Assembly (NCBI GenBank): GCA_964036295.1
Contig: OZ038470.1
Coordinates: 7,965,078-8,029,077, forward strand
From: Plumapathes pennacea
Lineage: Eukaryota > Cnidaria > Anthozoa > Antipatharia > Myriopathidae
Length of the DNA: 64,000 nucleotides
Direction: 5' to 3'
The notes under the pieces were generated by a model that did no database searches, had not been told where the DNA came from, and saw nothing but the letters and a program-made list of their open reading frames with translations. Position 1 is the stretch's first letter. Each line of letters opens with the position of its first letter. A program made the translations under genes and the position numbers. This document shows positions 1 through 63,123 of the stretch, piece by piece.

Positions 1-455
1 GATGTGACAGAATGATCTGAACTACATGTATCTGACAGTTCATATTCATTTTCATGACATGGTGATGTAATTGGGGATGATGGGGGTTCAGTGTCGACAT
101 CAGATGGGTAGCACTGGTCAAACATTGTTTCCCTTTTTCTCCTTTTACCACAATTTAATCCATCAACCTGCACTCCTTTATCAGAGAGAACCTTGGATTC
201 TGTTTGAGCAGCAACAGTCTTTGTCACAACATATCTTGCCCCCACACAACACTGGGTTCCAATTTCTCTCGTAGATGGGGCCTGGCTAGATGCAGTGCTA
301 CTACCAGAATTATCAGTGCCATACTCATCATGGACTAACTCTTCCACTGAACTATCTCTACTGGTAGAGCTAGCATTTTGTTGCAGATGATGCAAAACCT
401 TATGATAAATAACAAATGTATGCAGTTGACAAGGAAAGCATGCAAGCTATGTTAT

Positions 456-486
<31 letters not shown>

Positions 487-1267
487 TAACAGTTCTTGTA
501 CGCATTTTGCAAAGCCTCAATATTGATAGTAAATTTACATAGTCATATGACTGTCCTTGTAGTATAAAACATCAGACCAGCAAATATATTAATATATACC
601 AAACTTGAGACAGCTGCATGTCTAAAACTCTTGACCACTACTGTATATGAGATAGATTCCTTTTAAATTATATCATTCCATCTTTAAGAGGTTGCTAACA
701 ATGAACAATTTTCGATCTAAATTTTTCAGTTCATGGCAACCGGTCAGTATGAAGAGAAATAATCATCCAAATATAAAGAGAAATGAGAACCTTACTGAAG
801 CACAAAAAACGGCAAGGGATATTGAAACAAACAAAGAGCACTTTATACCATCACTAAAACTTTTATTTGGTTCAAATACACGCAGGAAGCATACATGTGC
901 GGCATATGCGCTATCAAAAACTCACCTCTTCGTGCTGACGTTGGTTCGCACGCTTCTCGCTAGCTATTCTACTTTGCTTCAGCTGCGGTCCAAAAGGAAA
1001 CACTGACGGTACAGCTTCTCGTTTAAGGCGCCTTTTTGTTTTTTGCCCGACCAATAATTGTGCCTTTAAATCGGACTCAAAACAATCTTCGCTGAAATGC
1101 TCGCTGCACACATAGCAGTTCTCGTGTGGAGGCAAATTATCTCGACGAAGTCTAGCGATCCACGATTTTCTCAGGCCTTTCTCCTTTGGAATGCGGTGGT
1201 AACTAATTCTTTTATCGGATGACTTTGAAGAGTAATTCGTGCAGCCAGGGACACAACAATGAACCAT
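1..1267 (-). CDS. THAP-type zinc-finger protein, 5' part (runs off the window)
   Basis: Two exons fit: 926-1267 (start codon at 1265-1267) and 1-398, joined in phase 0 by a GTGAGT donor at 925-920 and an AG acceptor at 400-399. Exon 1 encodes a THAP zinc finger: an N-terminal CCVPGC pair of cysteines, a Trp in SWIARL, CSEHF supplying the last Cys and His, and the closing AVPSVF motif. THAP domains bind DNA and come from P-element-type transposases. Exon 2 stays open to the window edge for 132 codons and is Ser/Thr-rich and acidic, with a short basic KRRKRE patch that could be a nuclear signal. Frame and splice fit are clear, but the rest of the protein is not visible, so it could be a host regulator or a THAP-transposase derivative. 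The acceptor of exon 2 has a weak pyrimidine tract. Confidence 0.82.
457..486. repeat. (TAA)n microsatellite
   Basis: About ten TAA units, lying in the intron of the THAP gene. Confidence 0.9.
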
Positions 1268-1502
1268 GATTACTTCAAACAAATACTTGAAGCTCTTCAG
1301 ACCGAAACGTGGTTTGACGATATGACGTCACATATCAAACCGCTGACTGTTTCTGTTCCCGCGATGAATAAGCAAGATGGCGGCAGGTTTCCTGTTCCTC
1401 CGATGGGTTTTCTTTAAAAAATACTGAGACTTTTTCAAAAATACTCACCAAAACTGAGTCTAAACAGCATTTAGAAGAATAGGAAATTTACTTCAAATTA
1501 CC

Positions 1503-1785
1503 CCTGAGTTCCCCTTTAAAACTTGTCCCCCATTCCACGCTCATATTAAAACTAGTTCCCATTCCACGCTCACTTTAACACTAGTTCCCATTCCACGCTC
1601 ATATTAAGGGGGAGGGGGAGGGGGAGGACTAAGTTTCGGAAACAGGAGCCACTTTCGTTGTTCAACAAGGAGTGGTGGTGAAAACATAGCATTTTTTCAG
1701 AGTGTCCCACATACTTTTGGCCAGGATTGTAGTTCCATTCCACGCTCACTTTAAAACTTGTCCCCATTCCACGCTCACTTTAGTC
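1503..1785. repeat. short direct repeats sharing an ATTCCACGCTCA core
   Basis: Five copies of ATTCCACGCTCA followed by an A/T-rich TTAAA-type spacer and a TTCCC or TCCCC run. Three copies sit at about 34-bp spacing (about 1530-1605) and two more near 1735-1780, separated by a purine-rich GGGGGAGGGGGAG stretch. It lies between the divergent THAP gene and the micro-exon gene. No coding potential seen. Confidence 0.7.
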
Positions 1786-1903
1786 TTTTTCATAGCTCAA
1801 ACGCATACAATGGCCTGTTCTTCCTAGTTACTACTGACAAGCCTTTTGATAAGCAAATTTAAGAAAGAATCATGTAATAATTAAAACTAATGAATTTTAC
1901 AGC

Positions 1904-1910
1904 TATAAAT
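1904..1910 (+). promoter_or_regulatory. TATA-like box upstream of the micro-exon gene
   Basis: TATAAAT lies 69 bp before the start codon of the gene beginning at 1979. A start of transcription about 30 bp further on would leave a short leader. This is inference from sequence and spacing only. Confidence 0.4.
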
Positions 1911-1978
1911 ATATTAGCAAAGCTGCGCGTATTTTCACTTTAATCTTTTGTTCGCAAACGTGAAAAAAGCTCATCAAC

Positions 1979-3717
1979 ATGCCTCTGTTCAACGAGAATA
2001 TCACTGCAATCGAAGAATTGATAAAACGCATCGACGAAGAACCGATCCCGGTTCGAGATGAAACGGAGACACTCCATCAAATGTTATCTGTTGTGCTAAG
2101 CGACATGAAGAAACTGACCCCACAAGAGAAGGACATTCCATTATATAATTCCATGTGTAATAAGATGACCGTAATCATGTGCGGGTTGGGCGGACCTGAA
2201 CCAGAAGACGATGACGACGACATGGAAGACGGGGATAGTAATTGTCCCGATGCAGGCAGGTAAGTTAACAAGCAATCTTGAATGTTTTTTCTGTTTCACT
2301 TGACTTTTGTTCGCAAAGCCGTATACACAGTTTAAACAAATCATTTCACAAGCAAACTTGAATGTTTTTTCTGTTTCACTTGACTTTTGTTCTCAAAGCC
2401 GTATACACAGTTTAAACAAATCATTCACAAAATATCTTTCTTTTTCCTCAACAGCACCATACCACAGCACCATATGCCAACGGCGTTATCCAGCATTGCG
2501 GAGAGGTAAGTTAATCAATCTTGATTGTTCTTTCGTTTCACTTGACTTTTGTTCTCAAAGCCGTATACACAGTTTAAACAAATCATTCACAAAATATCTT
2601 TCTTTTTTTTTCTCAACAGCACCATACCACAGCACCATATGCCAACGGCGTTATCCAGCATTGCGGAGAGGTAAGTTAATCAATCTTGATTGTTCTTTCG
2701 TTTCACTTGACTTTTGTTCTCAAAGCCGTATACACAGTTTAAACAAATCATTCACAAAATATCTTTCTTTTTTTTTCTCAACAGCACCATACCACAGCAC
2801 CATATGCCAACGGCGTTATCCAGCATTGCGGAGAGGTAAGTTAATCAATCTTGATTGTTCTTTCGTTTCACTTGACTTTTGTTCTCAAAGCCGTATACAC
2901 AGTTTAAACAAATCATTCACAAAATATCTTTCTTTTTTTTTCTCAACAGCACCATACCACAGCACCATATGCCAACGGCGTTATCCAGCATTGCGGAGAG
3001 GTAAGTTAATCAATCTTGATTGTTCTTTCGTTTCACTTGACTTTTGTTCTCAAAGCCGTATACACAGTTTAAACAAATCATTCACAAAATATCTTTCTTT
3101 TTTTTTCCCAACAGCACCATACCACAGCACCATATGCCAACGGCGTTATCCAGCATTGCGGAGAGGTAAGTTAATCAATCTTGATTGTTCTTTTCGTTTC
3201 ACTTGACTTTTGTTCTCAAAGCCGTATACACAGTTTAAACAAATCATTCACAAAATATCTTTCTTTTTTTTTCTCAACAGCACCATACCACAGCACCATA
3301 TGCCAACGGCGTTATCCAGCATTGCGGAGAGGTAAGTTAATCAATCTTGATTGTTCTTTCGTTTCACTTGACTTTTGTTCTCAAAGCCGTATACACAGTT
3401 TAAACAAATCATTCACAAAATATCTTTCTTTTTTTTTCTCAACAGCACCATACCACAGCACCATATGCCAACGGCGTTATCCAGCATTGCGGAGAGGTAA
3501 GTTAATCAATCTTGATTGTTCTTTCGTTTCACTTGACTTTTGTTCTCAAAGCCGTATACACAGTTTAAACAAATCATTCACAAAATATCTTTCTTTTTGC
3601 CTCAACAGCACCATACCACCTACAGAATATGTTGACCTAATAGATTGGTCGGAATCGTCAACTGATGACATGTCTCAATTCGACATTGATAAAATTCTTG
3701 ATTCTCTCTTGAATTAG
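1979..3717 (+). CDS. unrecognised acidic protein with seven identical 17-residue exon-encoded repeats
   Basis: Nine coding exons fit: 1979-2259, then seven 51-bp exons (2455-2505, 2620-2670, 2785-2835, 2950-3000, 3115-3165, 3281-3331, 3446-3496), then 3609-3717 ending in TAG. Every donor is G|GTAAGTTAA and every internal acceptor is a T-rich tract ending CAACAG; all junctions are phase 2, giving 248 residues. Exon 1 encodes about 93 residues with a helix-prone N-terminus and a Glu/Asp tail (PEPEDDDDDMEDGD). Each internal exon adds STIPQHHMPTALSSIAE with no change between copies. The last exon starts with the same 11 bases, then encodes a unique acidic end, DMSQFDIDKILDSLLN. Any retained intron gives a stop two codons after the exon (AGG TAA). 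I do not recognise the family. An acidic, intrinsically disordered regulator is possible but not shown. Confidence 0.75.
2340..3608. repeat. tandem array of about 165-bp exon-plus-intron units
   Basis: Exon starts are spaced 165, 165, 165, 165, 166, 165 and 163 bp. Each unit is a 51-bp exon plus an about 114-bp intron, and copies differ by only a few bases, mostly in the T-tract before the acceptor. The intron-derived half is also partly duplicated inside intron 1 (from about 2280). Near-identity of introns as well as exons means recent amplification or homogenisation by unequal exchange. Confidence 0.95.
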
Positions 3718-4261
3718 GATCGATGTCGAATTGAGACTTGTCGATGTTCCTTAGCGGACCAAATCCTACATTTGGATCAATGGCTAAGCTTCTTGGCAAA
3801 CAAGCGCTCAAAGGAATTGTTGACAATATAAAACATTAACATTGCTACATGTAAAATTTCATAACACATATCTTTTTTCATTAAAAATGTTTTTCAATAT
3901 CACTTTGTTGTGCATTTTCATTTCAATTTCCCCACGGTACCCGTCCCATAGCTACCCTGCATCTCAAATTGATCAATCAATCATAACATGAAAGCGAGGC
4001 AATCTGTCCCAACTGGTTACCTAGAAACCACATGTTGACCTTAGAAACGCAAGATTTTACGTATCGAACGCGCCAACCAATTTGGCGCCAAAATTATCCC
4101 TAACTAAATTAATATTTAAATCTTAAAATTTACCCATAATAATCTATGCATATCGATTACCTAGACACGTCATCTTGAATGCTAATGCCTATATTTACGT
4201 GACATGAAAGCGAGGCATTTTGTCCGGATTGGTCAGACCAAACTACTATTAAAGATTGCTA
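3718..4261. other. 3' flank without a recognised gene
   Basis: AT-rich sequence after the stop of the micro-exon gene. An ATTAAA-like signal lies near 3880. Nothing else supportable seen. Confidence 0.4.
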
Positions 4262-31563: not shown

Positions 31564-34500
31564 ATGCACGGACCCACAATGATGAGTGAAGAATATTTTT
31601 GGGGATTGTTTATGACAACATCGTTTATAGCATTCTCGTTCATGCAGGCAGGTAAGAAAACCATTCTCGTCACACACTGGGAGTTTACACGGCGCGCCCG
31701 AATGATTTCTCTGTTAGTAAAAACATTTGCAGTGCCAATGCTGGGATAACCTGATTCTTGTGCCTACTCCTGCATAGCTTCTCGATTAAAAAAAGCAATT
31801 TTCAATTCACTACAACATGATATTTTCTTGCAACTCTTTTTGGGAAGACATCCTTTATCGGCAAGAAACCGGCACTTACATCTATTACTGAGAGGAAAAA
31901 TACCCGAATGCTAGCGCTTACCTATATTTAACAATGGATAAACAGAATCTTACAAACGGCACAAAAACTGAAGGTGAAAAGCCGACAATTCAAATAACGA
32001 AATGGCTTGGTAACTGGTATATTGTCCGTTCGTGTCACTGAGAGTAAACACACTGAACATAAAACACAATAACAACATCCACACTTCAAACCATTATTCG
32101 AGTTTACGTTTTCTTGAAAACAATTTTACTAAGTTACATAATTTGGGTGGACTGTTGGAAAGGAAAATAATTAGACTAAAAACACGTCTCTGTTTAGTAG
32201 CCTTTAGTTGACGAGAACCTTCATATTAAGCTGCTCATTAAAATCTGAGGACAGATAAACCTCGATAAAGAATGTAGTGGATCAAAAGTCATAGAGTGAA
32301 AAGCAGTCCTCCTGGCAATTTTTTAAATATTTGGAATTTTGTCACAAACCTGGGATCGGGATGCACCTCCTCCATGACACCTCAAGAAACTTGGAGATAC
32401 TTGTGTTTCCCCCTTGTGTCGCCAAACTAACAGCTTTCATAAAATTTTCTTAGTAGGCTGGAAACCATTCAACTGAACGTTGTTCAGTTATTACTCTTTC
32501 GATAAGAAATGCAATCCACTTTGTTGGCATTGGCCGTGAACAGTCTAAACGCGTAGCGGGCTTTAGCCACAATTCAACACCATTCACATAATTTTAAGCT
32601 GCTTCCCGTGTGTGCACATGACAACGCTTTTCATCCAGTAATGCCCTCATACCGTAACCCAGGGGTTATTGACAAATACAGTGAACTTTTCTTTGGGATT
32701 TGTTCCTCAGACTTTCTCTTATTCACGGCAGGCTATGATTTGATTGGCTGGTTTAATTTATCGCGACACCACACACCTTCTTTTACGAAAACAAATTTCT
32801 ATCGTCGTTTCTGATTGGCTCCCCAACCTTGATCAAGAAGCCTACCGACGCACGCTGAATGAAAGTTTAGTTGTGCTTTCAGTGCGTTCCAAATCGGTAA
32901 TAATTGCTTTTTTCAAAGACCTGAATGAAGGGTGTCCGTTGCTGAAAGAAACCTTTGTATTCTGTGACGAGACAAGAAATCGGCGGTGAGTTTGGAAGTG
33001 TAACTTTCTCGGATCGCGATTCAAGTGTCGATCGGCCGTTGAAAACAGAAATGATTTTGTGCCGCTATTCCTTCAAATTACACTTTTACCTGTAATGATT
33101 GTATGCAGCATTAATGTCTTTGATAACATAAAACTATCATTTTGAATGAAGCTGTGTTTGTTCTCAAAGAGCTAAAAGGCGTGAGTTGTTCTTTAAATGT
33201 TTAGTGTCGCTTTTACAGAGTCACATCAAAATTCAACTTCAATATAAATGTTTGGGTAGGTTAGCTCCTCTCTTTCTCTCATATTCGAGTTGATGAAATC
33301 GAAAAAGCCATAAGTGCGAATTATTTTTGGCGAACGCGTACGCTTTTAGCTGTTCATTGTGCATGTGGCTTGGACCAAACACTAAAATAACATAGCAAAT
33401 AATACAAAAATAAAAACGTTCCCAGCTGAGGAATAGTACAGCAATCTGAGAAATCAGTCACAATCATAAGAATCTATCTAAAAACGTATCACCCGATCTA
33501 CTGATAACGACTACTGATAATTTTTGTTCATTTGGCAGATGGGCTTACGACCAGGTTTGGTCTGGCAAATCTGTTTGGAGGAAACTTCAGCGGTGGCCAA
33601 ACAGGGTAAGACATTTCGACAAAGTCACTAAACATCTAAGAAATACTCCCACATTGCGAGGTAGCACAAGAGGACTTTGTATTCTAAACGGAAGTCTTCT
33701 TTTCATTATAAAACGCAGATCCTCAGAGAAAAGAAGCAAGAAAAGCTATAAGCACTGGCGGAAAAGCCAAGTAAATTGTGCAAGTTCAGCACAACAACCA
33801 GGAGGAAATCCACAGGCCTCTGGTAAAAAAAGATGGCGCTTATGGAAAGAGTCATCCCCAACCTCGTTAAAAGAGCCAGGGGACAAGGCTGAGTCAGCCC
33901 AAACTGAGAAAGGCACAAAATGGTGGCGCATATGGAAAAATCCCTCCTCAACCTCGTTAAAGAAGCCTGGCAACGATGTTGAGTCACCCCAAGCTAAAAA
34001 AGGCACAAAGTGGTGGAGGTGCTGGGCGAAGGAGCAAAATGATGTCACGCCTTATGTTCCTACGTCTGCTGTAGTCAAGTTAACTCCAGATCTTGAGACA
34101 GTTTGTGTTCCAGAATTACCTTCTGTTCCTGAGTTAGCTTCAGGTCGCAAGTCGGTACCAGATTCCAAGGCTCCAGTTATTGTTTCACAGTCATCGGTTC
34201 TTGACCCCGAGTCGACTCCAAAGCCGAATCCAAAGCCGACTTCTGTTGTGGAGTCCGTAGAGGAGAAACATCAGATAAAGCTGGGCGCTAGGGTGCACAA
34301 GCGCGCTATAAAAATAAGACGACGGAATGCAAAAAATCCACGTAATCAAGCTAGAAGACCCATTCATGACCGCACACCGCCGCCCGATTTGCCTAAAGTG
34401 CACTACAAGAACTTATGGAGACCACCAGCGCCCAAGAAGGGCAAAAATCCCGTAGAACCTGCGCCCAGAAAGATTCCAGCGAAGGACATGAGCGACGAAA

Positions 34501-35528
34501 GAATGAAGAAACTCTTCCACAAGCGCTACTGGAATCCTGAGGCTGGAACATCAGGAGTTGAGGAACGTGACATAATAGAAGTGTGGCCCACTATCACAGA
34601 AGATGTGACTTACCCCGAAAACCCGCGCATTGTTAACGCACGAGGAACAATGGAAAGATGGGACATATTTTATGGCGACCAGTTCCAGGAAGCAGAAAAT
34701 CCCGAGGAGGAGGTAATAATTATACAAATAAAAGTTAGTAAGCTTAACCAAAGTGCACTCCGCACTTAAAACTTATGTCTGCGTATCCGGGTACACAGAT
34801 ACGCAGTGAACCGCAGACCACCCCTCACGCTATTTTTTTGAGGCATTTAATCAGATACACAGTGAATCTACACCGCGCGATAACGCTTTGAAAACTTAGG
34901 GAGAGGGTGGTCTTATTACACTGTGTATCTGTGTATGTACCCCATCTAATGCTTCTAAAGCTCAAGGGGAGGGGTGGCTACTTTCTGCTGCACCGCGTAT
35001 CCACTTCATAAAATCCTTCTTAAACTTCAACAAATTCACTGCGTATCCGCCGTTTACAAGGGGGACCGCTTAAAATTGCGGGGTATCATGTACTCACTCC
35101 AGTTGTGGAACGCAGAGATGGCTTTTTTCTGTAATATTTTTGGAGGGGGGGGGGGAGTTCTCAACGGCTAGTAGAGCATTGTGACAAAGCTGTACTGCGA
35201 AGACTTTGTTTGTCTGTTTGTTTTCATTCAAAAACAATCAAAAATGATCAAAGACATTTAGAATGTAGTGACCCTCTTTTTTGTTTTTGTGTTTGGTTTT
35301 GTTTTTGTTTTTGTTGTTTTTGTTTTTGCTGTTTTTTTTTTTTTTTTTCAGTCAGACTGTGAAACAGTTCTTTAGCTCCACTGGTATTGCGTCAAGGAAC
35401 ACGCACGGTCTGGGGAGGCAACGGAATCATTTACTAATTCTCACATAAAAATAACTTTAATATTTCAGGATTTCACGGACGAAATACGGGCAATAGGTGA
35501 AGCCGTGGCAAGGGCCTCGCTGTACTAA
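31564..35528 (+). CDS. unrecognised protein with N-terminal hydrophobic segment and cationic Trp-rich repeats
   Basis: Four exons fit in phase: 31564-31651, 33539-33605, 33719-34712 and 35469-35528 (TAA), giving 402 residues. Donors are GTAAG, GTAAGA and GTAATA; acceptors TTTGGCAG, AAACGCAG and ATATTTCAG. Residues 11-28 are hydrophobic and aromatic (YFWGLFMTTSFIAFSFM), a signal peptide or type II anchor, followed by a Gly-rich stretch to about 52. Residues about 79-150 hold three repeats built on KKRWRLWKE, KGTKWWRIWKN and KGTKWWRCWAK separated by SSPTSLKEPG-type spacers. The middle is Pro/Val/Ser-rich, then a strongly basic Arg/Lys/Pro region, then an acidic tail. No enzyme motif is visible. 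If exported, the repeats resemble cationic Trp-rich membrane-active peptides; if it stays inside, a nucleic-acid or membrane-binding role fits equally. Family unknown. Confidence 0.75.
34775..35165. repeat. GCGTATCC-rich repeat
   Basis: Several mirrored CTGCGTATCC / GGATACGCAG-like motifs (ACACAGATACGCAGTG, TGTGTATCTGTGTATG) alternate with GGGGAGGGGTGG runs. The same vocabulary is tandemly arranged at 59338-59640. It fills the last intron of the Trp-rich gene. Confidence 0.65.
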
Positions 35529-60400: not shown

Positions 60401-63123
60401 GAAGTTACGACTGACAACCGGGCGCCCTGTGTCCAGTGACATGCCTCGTTTGCCGCGAACTCACGTCAATCTCCCGCTCCCACGCCTCATCTTCCGCTCT
60501 AGCACAATCTCATGTCAATCTCCCGCATTCGTGCCTCATCTTCCGCTCTAGCACAAACTTACGTCAATCTCCCGCCCCCGCGCCTCATCTTCCGCTCTAG
60601 CACAAACTCACGTCAATCTCCCGCCCCCGCGCCTCATCTTCCGCTCTAGCACGAACTCACGTTAATCTCCCGCATTCGCGCCTTGTCTCCCGCGAGCTCA
60701 CGTCGACCTCTCGCTTTTGAGAGCTAGAACTTAGTTATTTTAACAATAGTTTACATGACACATAAGAGCTAGATAGATCCATAGTTAAAATCAATCCGTT
60801 GGCGTTAGTTGGCTGGTACTAAATTTCAGTTTACCAAACTACCCCTATCCTTCCATAACTCTTAATCTTCCGCCTGAAAATTCAGTTGTCTCTGCAATGA
60901 GCATCCCAGGAAACATACAGGCAAAGATGGACAGAAACAGACAAAAACAGTGGTGAATCATTTCACTTCCAAGCTCAAAATGCAGATTCTCTCAACCTTT
61001 TTAAGAAGAAAACGTATGAGTGATGTGGTGAGAACCTGACAAAGGTATCAAAAGCCAAGTTCTCCTTTCTATGTAACATATCCCTATTGAGAAACTGAGG
61101 AAGAAAATAATTTTCTTCAATTATTGAAGTTGATCACTTTTGGGAGTGAGGATTAATGAGAGAGAAATGGCATCAGAGAGTCAGAAATGGCGAGCACTGG
61201 TGTTCTCACCACAACGCCATCCGTCCATCATCTGTTACAGTGATTGCCTTCCCTTGCCAAAAGTTGACATGCTTGACCCAGTCTCCAAGACTCAGCTTAT
61301 GCAACAAGCTGGGGCCCTGGAATTTAAAACTCCACAGTATTAATCAATGTTACTGGTTTGCATTGATTTGGGGATCTGTGAATAAACCTGGTAGACTTGG
61401 CAGGTGCATTAATTATGTGGGGATGGGAGAGGGAGGTTGAATATATTGATTCTTTCCAGATTTGGTCCTCACCTTTGTGGCACAGAATAGAACAATGTAA
61501 AGAATGAAGAGAAAGAATCATTAAATGGAAACATTAGAATAACAATGACAAACCAATCACATTATAACCAAATCAACAACTAAACCAACCAGTCACAACA
61601 ACAACCTGATACATACATGTACATTAATACCATCATCTCACAACAACTAATAATATTAGTTTGTCTGGCAAATACAGAGGGCTGATATTTCTCAATATGA
61701 ACTGAGCAAACAAGGTTATATATTATAAAAGTCCATACAGAGAAATATCAGTCCTCTGTCTTCACCACAGAAACCTCAATATAGCTTTAGATTCTCAGAA
61801 ACTCAATTCAATTAATATAACTTGTATTTGTCTATGACACACTAGTCATGAATTCTGGACTTACCTTACTTATATCCCATATCATCGCTGAATTGTCCTC
61901 AGATCCTGACAGGACTATATTTTTCTCTACTGCCACACATGTCACCCAGTGAGTATGACCATATAAGGTGTGCAAATGCTTCCCACTAGACATGTGCCAA
62001 ATAATGACAGTGCAATCTCTTGATCCAGAAACAATAAGGTCATGTTGATTATCATCATGCAGCAGACAACCTGTGTGAAAAGTGATAGTTCATCTTTTAG
62101 TTCACTAACTGGGGCCAATTCAGTAAGCATTTAAAAGTGTATTTTACAAGTCACACCAATATTTCCCCACATGTTATACATATTGGCTGCACTTAAATAT
62201 GCAATGATTTGTAGACTTATGTCAGACTAGAGTGATTTCAGTGGTGTTAGAATAGAATAGTCCAACTTGCAAAATACACTTGTAAAATAATGTTTATTGA
62301 ATTGGTCGATGATTGAGTGCTATGGGAAAGTACACTCTTGAAACACTCTTGAAATAATCCATCACACAAGATTGTAGGTATAATTATTTCTGATAACTGC
62401 AACAAAATATAGTTTGTTCCTTTTCCCAAGTTAAATGTTTTATGGAATGTTTTGCAACATTAACTGATGCAATAAAAAAAAACGTGGAAAAAGGAAGGAA
62501 TTTGATAGCCCAACAAAACCAAAAGTGCTTGAAACTACAGCATGAAAGAAGTGTTTAGGGAGAAATGCAAGATGGGATCAGTTAAGCACCCCACTCTCCA
62601 CCTCTCTTGTTTGACCCAATACCATTGTTGTGATACAACCATTTACAGTATGTCAGTGGCAACATTTTAAAGGGACCTAGTTTGACACTACAACTTGGTT
62701 TGATTAATAATCAGGATACCAATGATTGCTTTTGCAGTAATGAACTATGAGTTACATATGACCACAAGTTCAAATTGCTCCTGATCCAGTTGCTCATATG
62801 TCACTCGCACTTTGTTGAGACAAAGTTCAACATGTCTTGAACTTTGAGAGAGCTCTCATAGAGATCACATCCCTTTGCTCTCCACGAATGTATTTCTGTC
62901 CCTCTCCCACTGCCTTTTTCCTCCACTCTCTTTATATTCTCACAAAGCCTAGCATTTTGTTGTGTACCTGTTATTTCTCTCAGAGCAATAGTTAAAACTG
63001 CTCCCAAGTGTCCAGTGAGGACATGAAGACAATCCTTTGTCCAACTGTCCCACACACGGATACTCTTGTCTTCACCACAACTTATCACCTTCTCACCAGA
63101 AAATCTAGCATCATAAACCACAC
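57442..63123 (-). CDS. WD40-repeat protein, 3' part (5' exons beyond the window)
   Basis: Six exons fit in phase: 62968-63123, 61870-62070, 60235-60340, 59015-59198, 57872-58025 and a last one at 57442-57527 (TAA). WD40 blades are plain: VISCGEDKSIRVWDSWTKDC, LTGHLGAVLTIAL, LIVSGSRDCTVIIWHMSSGK, LYGHTHWVTCVAV, IVLSGSEDNSAMIWDI, then weaker ones (ALVLTGDGKFVLW, LVAIGTHSGSVYMYHCSEDW, LVTAGDDGIVRVHRWFPPS). Such propellers serve as protein-binding scaffolds. The 61870-62070 exon alone carries two blades. The sequence before 62968-63123 must continue upstream, since that exon starts in phase 1 with no start codon. The final exon adds 28 residues and is less certain. I cannot name the subfamily. 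Confidence 0.85.
59338..59640. repeat. tandem repeat of about 81 bp with GTATCCGCGTATCAACTTTA
   Basis: GTATCCGCGTATCAACTTTA, ATACAATGTTTTAA, GAACGTAGGGG and AGGGGTGGTCTTATT occur in this order three times, with a partial fourth unit on each side. The outer parts use the same words as 34775-35165, so one element seems to have amplified its middle. Intronic in the WD40 gene. Confidence 0.85.
59950..60030. repeat. degenerate interstitial telomere-type repeat
   Basis: CCAACCCTAACCCTAATCC and further imperfect CCCTAA/CCTAAC units over about 70 bp (for example TAACCCTAAACCTAAGCC). Animal telomeres are TTAGGG; this is a decayed internal tract, in an intron. Confidence 0.7.
60463..60718. repeat. 49-bp minisatellite
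   Basis: Unit starts (ACGTCAATCTCCCGC or a variant) at 60463, 60512, 60561, 60610 and 60659 are exactly 49 bp apart; a shortened sixth starts at 60700. Units differ mainly in a CCCCGCGCC / ATTCGTGCC segment. It lies just after the telomere-type tract. Confidence 0.92.
60957..61153. mobile_element. MITE with GCTCAAAATGCAGATTCTCT motif, copy 2
   Basis: CATTTCACTTCCAAGCTCAA at one end and AAGTTGATCACTTTTGGGAGTG at the other, with the central GTATGAGTGATGTGGTGAGA block as in 41770-41967. Confidence 0.65.

What the first reader, a model, noticed from the sequence alone, without database searches (positions are those of the whole stretch)
1979..3717. Tandem micro-exon array adding identical 17-residue units to a protein
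Seven 51-bp exons, each with its own strong acceptor and donor, sit on an about 165-bp tandem repeat. All are in phase 2 and encode the same STIPQHHMPTALSSIAE. Exon length and intron length (about 114 bp) are both multiples of three, every internal junction phase is identical, and retained introns stop at once. Splicing could therefore include any number of units without breaking the frame, and unequal exchange could change copy number between individuals. Intron identity shows the array is recent. I know of no described protein with this repeat.
Basis: partly seen in the sequence, partly recalled or inferred. Interest (0 to 1): 0.85.

Follow-up and report, generated by a model that had tools for sequence, protein, structure and literature searches.

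The report
Exon-repeat gene inside a virus-like transposon
The repeated mini-exons are real in the DNA, but they belong to a gene at the end of a large virus-like jumping element (a Polinton), whose copies in this genome carry from none to seven of them, so the likely protein length differs from copy to copy.

Summary
Observation confirmed: seven identical 51-nt phase-2 exons (window 2455-3496) lie between exon 1 (1979-2259) and a last exon (3609-3717). But this is not a stand-alone host gene. Window 1-4248 is the right part of a 35.5-kb Maverick/Polinton insertion (C9:7933870-7969325) with ~510-bp inverted repeats, (AGT)2//(ACT)2 ends and a 6-bp target duplication. The gene is the terminal accessory gene and reads into the inverted repeat. 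Fourteen copies examined carry 0, 1, 2, 3, 5 or 7 units; 25 of 28 units are 51 nt and in frame. Exon-1 and last-exon types occur in all four combinations among 8 copies, so ends have recombined. Exon 1 shows strong purifying selection against a 45%-identical relative; the unit exons diverge no less than adjacent intron, so selection on the repeats is not shown. Pfam, PHROGs, NCBIfam and PDB sequences do not name the protein. Splicing and expression are untested. Ten paper searches showed no spliced Polinton gene with such an array; one paper (passages seen) reports no introns in intact vertebrate Mavericks. New variant of a known kind; a neutral minisatellite is the strongest rival.

The parts
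1..4248 (+). Right part of Polinton insertion C9:7933870-7969325 (window is C9:7965078 onward); 1790-4248 is continuous with other copies, 1-1789 is rearranged or nested material
1979..2259 (+). Exon 1 (281 nt), 93 codons plus AG; three predicted helices (low-confidence model) and an acidic tail
2268..2430 (+). Intron 1 stretch holding two copies of an ~80-bp block that also varies in number between copies
2455..2505 (+). Unit exon 1 of 7 (51 nt, phase 2)
2620..2670 (+). Unit exon 2 of 7
2785..2835 (+). Unit exon 3 of 7
2950..3000 (+). Unit exon 4 of 7
3115..3165 (+). Unit exon 5 of 7
3281..3331 (+). Unit exon 6 of 7
3446..3496 (+). Unit exon 7 of 7
3609..3717 (+). Last exon, STIPPTEYVDLIDW...FDIDKILDSLLN and stop; one of two alternative last-exon types
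3666..3743 (+). Long hairpin astride the stop codon (z -7.6)
3739..4248 (+). Right terminal inverted repeat, ends in ACTACT
3744..3839 (+). Short reading frame inside the terminal inverted repeat (31 aa)
4249..4254 (+). 6-bp target-site duplication ATTAAA, also found beside the left end

Best explanation
The array is part of a spliced accessory gene at the right end of a Maverick/Polinton family. Shown: the element identity, the gene's place beside the inverted repeat, unit numbers of 0-7 among copies, and reshuffling of exon-1 and last-exon types. Inferred: the exons are spliced in, each adding 17 residues to a linker (probably disordered) between an N-terminal helical domain with an acidic tail and a C-terminal acidic/hydrophobic motif. 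The protein is probably a regulatory (early-type) protein of the element; this step is the weakest. The unit, one symmetric exon plus a near-identical intron, expands and shrinks by unequal exchange or slippage. Because every junction is phase 2, a change in unit number keeps the frame, and the array can serve as a homology tract through which different 5' and 3' ends are exchanged. The confidence covers the element plus splicing of the units, not selection on unit number; it overlaps with the neutral rival below, so the odds are not meant to sum to one.
For: Pfam hits on the C1 copy: DNA_pol_B_2 4.9e-39, rve 1.2e-10, Chromo 3e-13, Pox_A32 2.2e-06. Inverted repeats bound elements of about 15.5 to 36.5 kb; 6-bp target duplications match at 6 of 7 paired elements, 5 by script and C11 by eye. 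Ends AGTAGT//ACTACT equal a motif reported for vertebrate Mavericks (PMC8097293 section 7). In-frame unit numbers: window 7, C2:17.54 5, C1 3, C7 3, C9:7.947 2, C11 2, C6:17.155 2 (upstream end lost), C2:26.46 1; 25 of 28 units found are 51 nt and in frame, all 25 with AG and GTAAGT. Window units all carry a Met codon absent from the 18 other 51-nt units, and lie on 114-115-nt introns where those between C1/C7/C2 units are 190-193: at least two separate expansions. All four end combinations occur among 8 copies: LP 1, LS 4, VP 2, VS 1. Exon 1, window versus the divergent L033: 42 of 52 synonymous but 66 of 212 nonsynonymous sites differ, p about 1e-10.
Against: No RNA evidence. Unit exons diverge as much as the adjacent downstream intron (2.5% versus 2.4%, one unit per locus, 8 loci) and more than it when all 25 units are used (3.8% versus 2.2%); of 10 codon variants 6 change the residue, too few to test. 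Within the young family exon-1 dN/dS is 0.42-1.12 for the 12 L-V pairs, 1 of 12 with p < 0.05, and 0.13-1.79 over the finite pairs. 3 of 28 units are out of frame (38, 55, 55 nt); C2:17.54 has a 22-bp gap in exon 1 and C2:26.46 has exon 1 split. L033, the most divergent relative found, has no unit. No structure or family match supports any function.
Confidence: 0.68

Rival explanations
1. A neutral minisatellite in a decaying element: the 165-bp unit grows and shrinks by slippage; the exons ride along and unit number does not matter to the element. (Compatible with the element identity and even with splicing.)
For: Exon divergence is no lower than that of the downstream intron. The same element family has other tandem arrays that differ between copies: a 29-bp and a 45/90-bp array. 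The window's own element holds nested retroelements and a broken capsid-like frame.
Against: 25 of 28 units keep frame, and all 25 keep AG and GTAAGT, though the copies are young. Exon 1 is under long-term constraint.
Confidence: 0.45
2. The units are not used: exon 1 is spliced to the last exon and the array is intronic.
For: C3:26.218 and L033 have exon 1 followed by a phase-2 acceptor with no unit between.
Against: Consensus donors and AG acceptors at all 25 of the 51-nt units and a shared open phase.
Confidence: 0.15
3. An ordinary host gene family spread by segmental duplication.
For: Open frames in several dispersed copies.
Against: Homology ends at inverted-repeat termini flanked by 6-bp duplications, with polymerase, integrase and ATPase inside.
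Confidence: 0.02
4. The array length is an assembly artefact.
For: Near-identical repeats are easily mis-counted; no reads were available.
Against: In-frame arrays of 1-5 units that differ from the window's stand at seven other loci, and the window's units share a private codon.
Confidence: 0.05

Closest known systems
Maverick/Polinton elements (vertebrate survey PMC8097293; found passages and section 7 read)
   Same: PolB, chromodomain integrase, A32-like ATPase, inverted repeats, (AGT)2//(ACT)2 ends, 6-bp target duplications; that paper places accessory genes in regions flanking the core
   Different: That paper reports no introns in genes of intact elements; here a terminal gene is predicted to have up to eight introns and a variable exon array
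Adintoviruses (PMC11071296, passages only)
   Same: PolB plus rve integrase with C-terminal chromodomain
   Different: N-terminal OTU-like domain of PolB and hexon similarity were not tested; no match of the micro-exon protein to any family searched
Schistosome micro-exon genes (PMC5825161, PMC8293314, passages only)
   Same: Short symmetric exons that can be skipped without frame loss; described as very dynamic
   Different: Those exons are 36 bp or less, in animal genes for secreted or membrane proteins; here identical 51-nt units in a virus-like element
Tandem-duplicated exons coding for near-identical peptides in frog host-defence peptide genes (PMC3899252, passages only)
   Same: Identical exons in a row giving repeats in one transcript
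   Different: Animal host-defence genes, not a mobile element
Variable internal tandem repeats in human duplicated genes (PMC2812944, passages only)
   Same: Minisatellite expansion that mostly keeps the reading frame and lengthens low-complexity regions between domains
   Different: Human segmental duplications; not a mobile element

Membership tests
Maverick/Polinton | Family B DNA polymerase | tested here: met
   DNA_pol_B_2, E 4.9e-39, L022:3-3440
Maverick/Polinton | Retroviral-type integrase, here with chromodomain | tested here: met
   rve 1.2e-10 and Chromo 3e-13 in two neighbouring open frames of the C1 copy
Maverick/Polinton | A32/FtsK-like packaging ATPase | tested here: met
   Pox_A32 2.2e-06, 27.8 bits against a cut-off of 22.8
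Maverick/Polinton | Major capsid protein and protease | tested here: inconclusive
   479-aa and 196-aa frames sit in the expected place, but Pfam, NCBIfam and PDB sequences gave nothing, or chance-level hits only with the alignment of six relatives; the labels are recalled. Fold prediction not accepted
Maverick/Polinton | Long terminal inverted repeats with AGT-type ends | tested here: met
   400-510 bp, AGTAGT//ACTACT; the C11 left end reads AGTAAT
Maverick/Polinton | 6-bp target-site duplication | tested here: met
   6 of 7 paired elements; C2:17.52-17.54 does not match
Maverick/Polinton | Intronless genes (as reported for intact vertebrate elements) | tested here: not met
   The terminal gene is predicted to be spliced; polymerase and capsid-like frames are long and open. 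A departure in one accessory gene, not a defining core feature
[quoted passage not shown]
   definition seen in passages of PMC11071296
Schistosome micro-exon gene | Most of the coding region in symmetric exons of 36 bp or less | tested here: not met
   exons are 281, 51 and 109 nt
Schistosome micro-exon gene | Secreted or membrane-anchored product | not tested
   no signal-peptide tool was used

The most novel reading that the evidence does not exclude
A virus-like Polinton carries a spliced accessory gene whose symmetric micro-exon array is a built-in variation device: unit number sets linker length, and the array acts as a recombination tract that swaps N- and C-terminal ends between co-resident elements.
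Probability: 0.25. Interest if true: 0.75.

Novelty: new variant of a known kind. Interest (0 to 1): 0.55.

Why it matters
Polintons are at the root of several eukaryotic DNA virus groups (recalled), and their genes are reported as intronless in vertebrates (PMC8097293). A spliced terminal gene with a recombining exon array would show that these elements use the host spliceosome and can vary a protein's length and ends without frame loss. Many dispersed copies in one genome make the growth of an exon array measurable.

Tried and rejected
Host gene family: rejected by element ends and target duplications. Known protein family for the gene: Pfam, PHROGs, NCBIfam and PDB sequences gave nothing. 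Relatives in IMG/VR with the capsid-like protein and with the exon-1 alignment: none confirmed (2 of 8 scans used). Exon 1 in other Polinton families of this genome: no row outside this family and L033 in two protein searches. Spliced copies of the repeat elsewhere in the genome: the 22 rows listed all run through stops and lie in the known arrays (short query, low sensitivity). Fold of exon 1: three helices, mean pLDDT 63.5, weak; the one fold search tried was not accepted. Window copy as a solo end: my first reading, dropped when the second inverted repeat and the matching target duplication were found. A 60-nt in-frame unit in the C3 copies: first reading, corrected to 55 nt and out of frame.

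Full report
CHECK. The seven 51-nt exons are as described. Each starts after an AG acceptor with a pyrimidine tract, ends at GTAAGT, and reads STIPQHHMPTALSSIAE in phase 2 between exon 1 (1979-2259) and a last exon (3609-3717). A consensus scan finds these 7 and nothing else in the window; block-shuffled windows give 0.02 each (200 shuffles). Intron lengths are 195, 114 x5, 115 and 112.

WHERE IT SITS. The window is C9:7965078-8029077 of a 290-Mb, 24-contig assembly. The 165-bp unit gives 70 matching rows at several loci, and homology between copies continues from window ~1790 to a sharp end at about 4248. Three copies (C1, C7, C2) are 20-21 kb long with ~400-510-bp inverted repeats at both ends. 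The inverted repeat has 17 matching rows. The window's right end pairs with a left end at C9:7933870, and both ends are flanked by ATTAAA. Target duplications agree at C9, C2:26.42-26.46, C6:16.77, C1 and C7 by script, at C11 by eye from the printed bases because its left end reads AGTAAT, and do not agree at C2:17.52-17.54.

WHAT THE ELEMENT IS. On the C1 copy, Pfam names a viral/organellar family B polymerase, an rve integrase core, a chromodomain and a Pox_A32-type ATPase. With AGTAGT//ACTACT ends and 6-bp duplications this is a Maverick/Polinton; PMC8097293 (section 7) gives the same end motif, TIRs of 46-1,447 bp, sizes of 12.7-24.6 kb and accessory regions outside the core. The 479-aa frame is called capsid-like from recall and position only. 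It has 64 matching rows in this genome: 8 rows at six loci at 91-100% identity, 56 rows at 29-53%. Libraries did not name it: no hit alone, and only chance-level hits for an alignment with five relatives. The window's own element is not intact: its capsid-like frame is broken, and an LTR-type element with reverse transcriptase and integrase, a LINE-type reverse transcriptase and a THAP-domain ORF lie inside it.

THE GENE FAMILY. Fourteen rows match exon 1; two of them (C3:26227171 and C3:26228657, partial) were not fetched. Among the 14 copies examined (window, L009-L020, L033) the unit exons number: window 7; C2:17.54 5; C1 3; C7 3; C9:7.947 2; C11 2; C6:17.155 2 with the upstream part lost; C2:26.46 1; C3:26.234 and C3:26.253 one each of 55 nt, out of frame (no exon 1 found at the latter); C6:16.780 one of 38 nt, out of frame and without exon 1; C3:26.218, C6:16.766 (exon 1 lost) and L033 none. 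So 25 of 28 units are 51 nt and in frame. The two 55-nt units and the 38-nt unit were left out of the divergence counts, which used 25 units. C2:17.54 has a 22-bp gap in exon 1 and C2:26.46 has its exon 1 split. No exon-1 match was listed outside this family and L033, although the genome holds many other Polinton-like loci.

HOW THE ARRAY CHANGES. All seven window units have ATG at codon 8, where the 18 other 51-nt units have ACG. Window introns between units are 114-115 nt, while those between units in C1, C7 and C2 are 190-193, from a second ~80-bp block. The window array and the C1/C7/C2 arrays therefore most likely grew separately. Exon 1 falls into two types (within-type identity 94-99%, between at most 93%) and the last exon into two types (within 96-100%, between at most 73%). 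Eight copies with both show all four combinations: LP 1 (window), LS 4, VP 2, VS 1 (L009 was compared over 176 nt of exon 1). For instance L011 shares exon 1 with L009 at 99.4% but its last exon with L012 at 99.2%. Exchange between the two ends must have happened; the array is the natural tract for it (inference).

IS IT CODING? Against L033 (45% identical in exon 1) 42 of 52 synonymous sites but 66 of 212 nonsynonymous sites differ from the window (p about 1e-10); all 8 comparisons agree but share L033 and are not independent. L033 keeps the phase-2 junction at the same place, with its own donor (GTTAGT) and a CAACAG acceptor, and its last exon is related instead to the gene at the opposite element end. 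So exon 1 and its junction are old and real. Within the young family the signal is weak: dN/dS 0.42-1.12 over 12 L-V pairs, 1 of 12 with p < 0.05. For the unit exons there is no such evidence: with one unit from each of 8 loci, exon divergence equals that of the downstream intron (2.5% versus 2.4%; the upstream value of 9.6% is inflated by one locus cut there, L016); with all 25 units it is 3.8% exon, 2.2% downstream, 5.0% upstream; 6 of 10 codon variants are replacements.

MECHANISM. Shown: element, location, variable unit number, end shuffling. Inferred: splicing of every unit, a 17-residue linker repeat, a regulatory role. The exon-1 model has three helices at low confidence (pLDDT 63.5) followed by an acidic stretch; both last-exon types end in an F-x-I-D-x-I-L-D-S-L-L-N-like motif (cut short in C9:7.947), which recalls an activation motif (recalled, untested).

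LITERATURE. I made 10 searches. Polinton with microexon: 0 papers. I opened passages of PMC11071296, PMC5825161, PMC8293314, PMC2812944, PMC8097293 (also section 7), PMC3899252, PMC12220804 and PMC11244446; other papers were seen as listings only. PMC8097293 states that no introns were observed in genes of intact vertebrate Mavericks. PMC12220804 reports group I self-splicing introns in protist Polinton-like viruses. No spliced exon array in a Polinton appeared in what I saw, but the 2021 adintovirus paper is not held, and subscription papers and Repbase were not searchable.

VERDICT. A true observation with a changed meaning: an exon array in a Polinton accessory gene. Interesting for the intron-rich design and the natural series of 0 to 7 units; the functional importance of unit number is open, and a neutral minisatellite is the strongest rival.

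Noticed in passing
window 3666-3743; L009, L011, L012, L013 equivalents: Long hairpin astride the stop codon (z -7.6). Both last-exon types (about 70% identical) form one with different stem letters (5 copies folded, z -4.8 to -7.6); L020, L033 and the opposite-end gene do not.
   Followed up: partly
window 3744-3839: Short reading frame MFLSGPNPTFGSMAKLLGKQALKGIVDNIKH inside the terminal inverted repeat, hence present at both ends of several elements, with a recognisable relative in L033.
   Followed up: partly
C6:16765306-16780772 (L014, L015, L028): Palindromic Polinton: polymerase pieces on both strands and the micro-exon gene's last exon at both termini, with matching 6-bp target duplication.
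   Followed up: partly
window 914-1282 (-) and L021:8519-9676 (-): THAP-domain ORF (E 4.4e-21) and a 386-aa transposase-like ORF without Pfam match, nested in the Polinton; Kolobok-like by recall only.
   Followed up: partly
C9:7947223-7948135 (L010, L029): The window's 35.5-kb element holds a second, inverted copy of the gene with two units; an LTR-type and a LINE-type element lie between it and a stretch matching its upstream part.
   Followed up: partly
L023:3958-4500 (-): Predicted protein near the opposite Polinton end holds two ~32-residue repeats, so another terminal gene of the element may be repeat-bearing.
   Followed up: no
window 1516-1607; L012:3422-3844: 29-bp minisatellite near the gene and a 45/90-bp minisatellite upstream of it in other copies, both differing in length between copies.
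   Followed up: no
G000 genome: 64 matching rows for the capsid-like protein, 56 of them at 29-53% identity, many with open frames: this genome holds several Polinton families.
   Followed up: no
window 33827-34016 and 60458-60683: A 90-bp x 2.1 repeat inside a 439-aa open frame (33450-34769, no Pfam match) and a 49-bp x 4.6 repeat.
   Followed up: no
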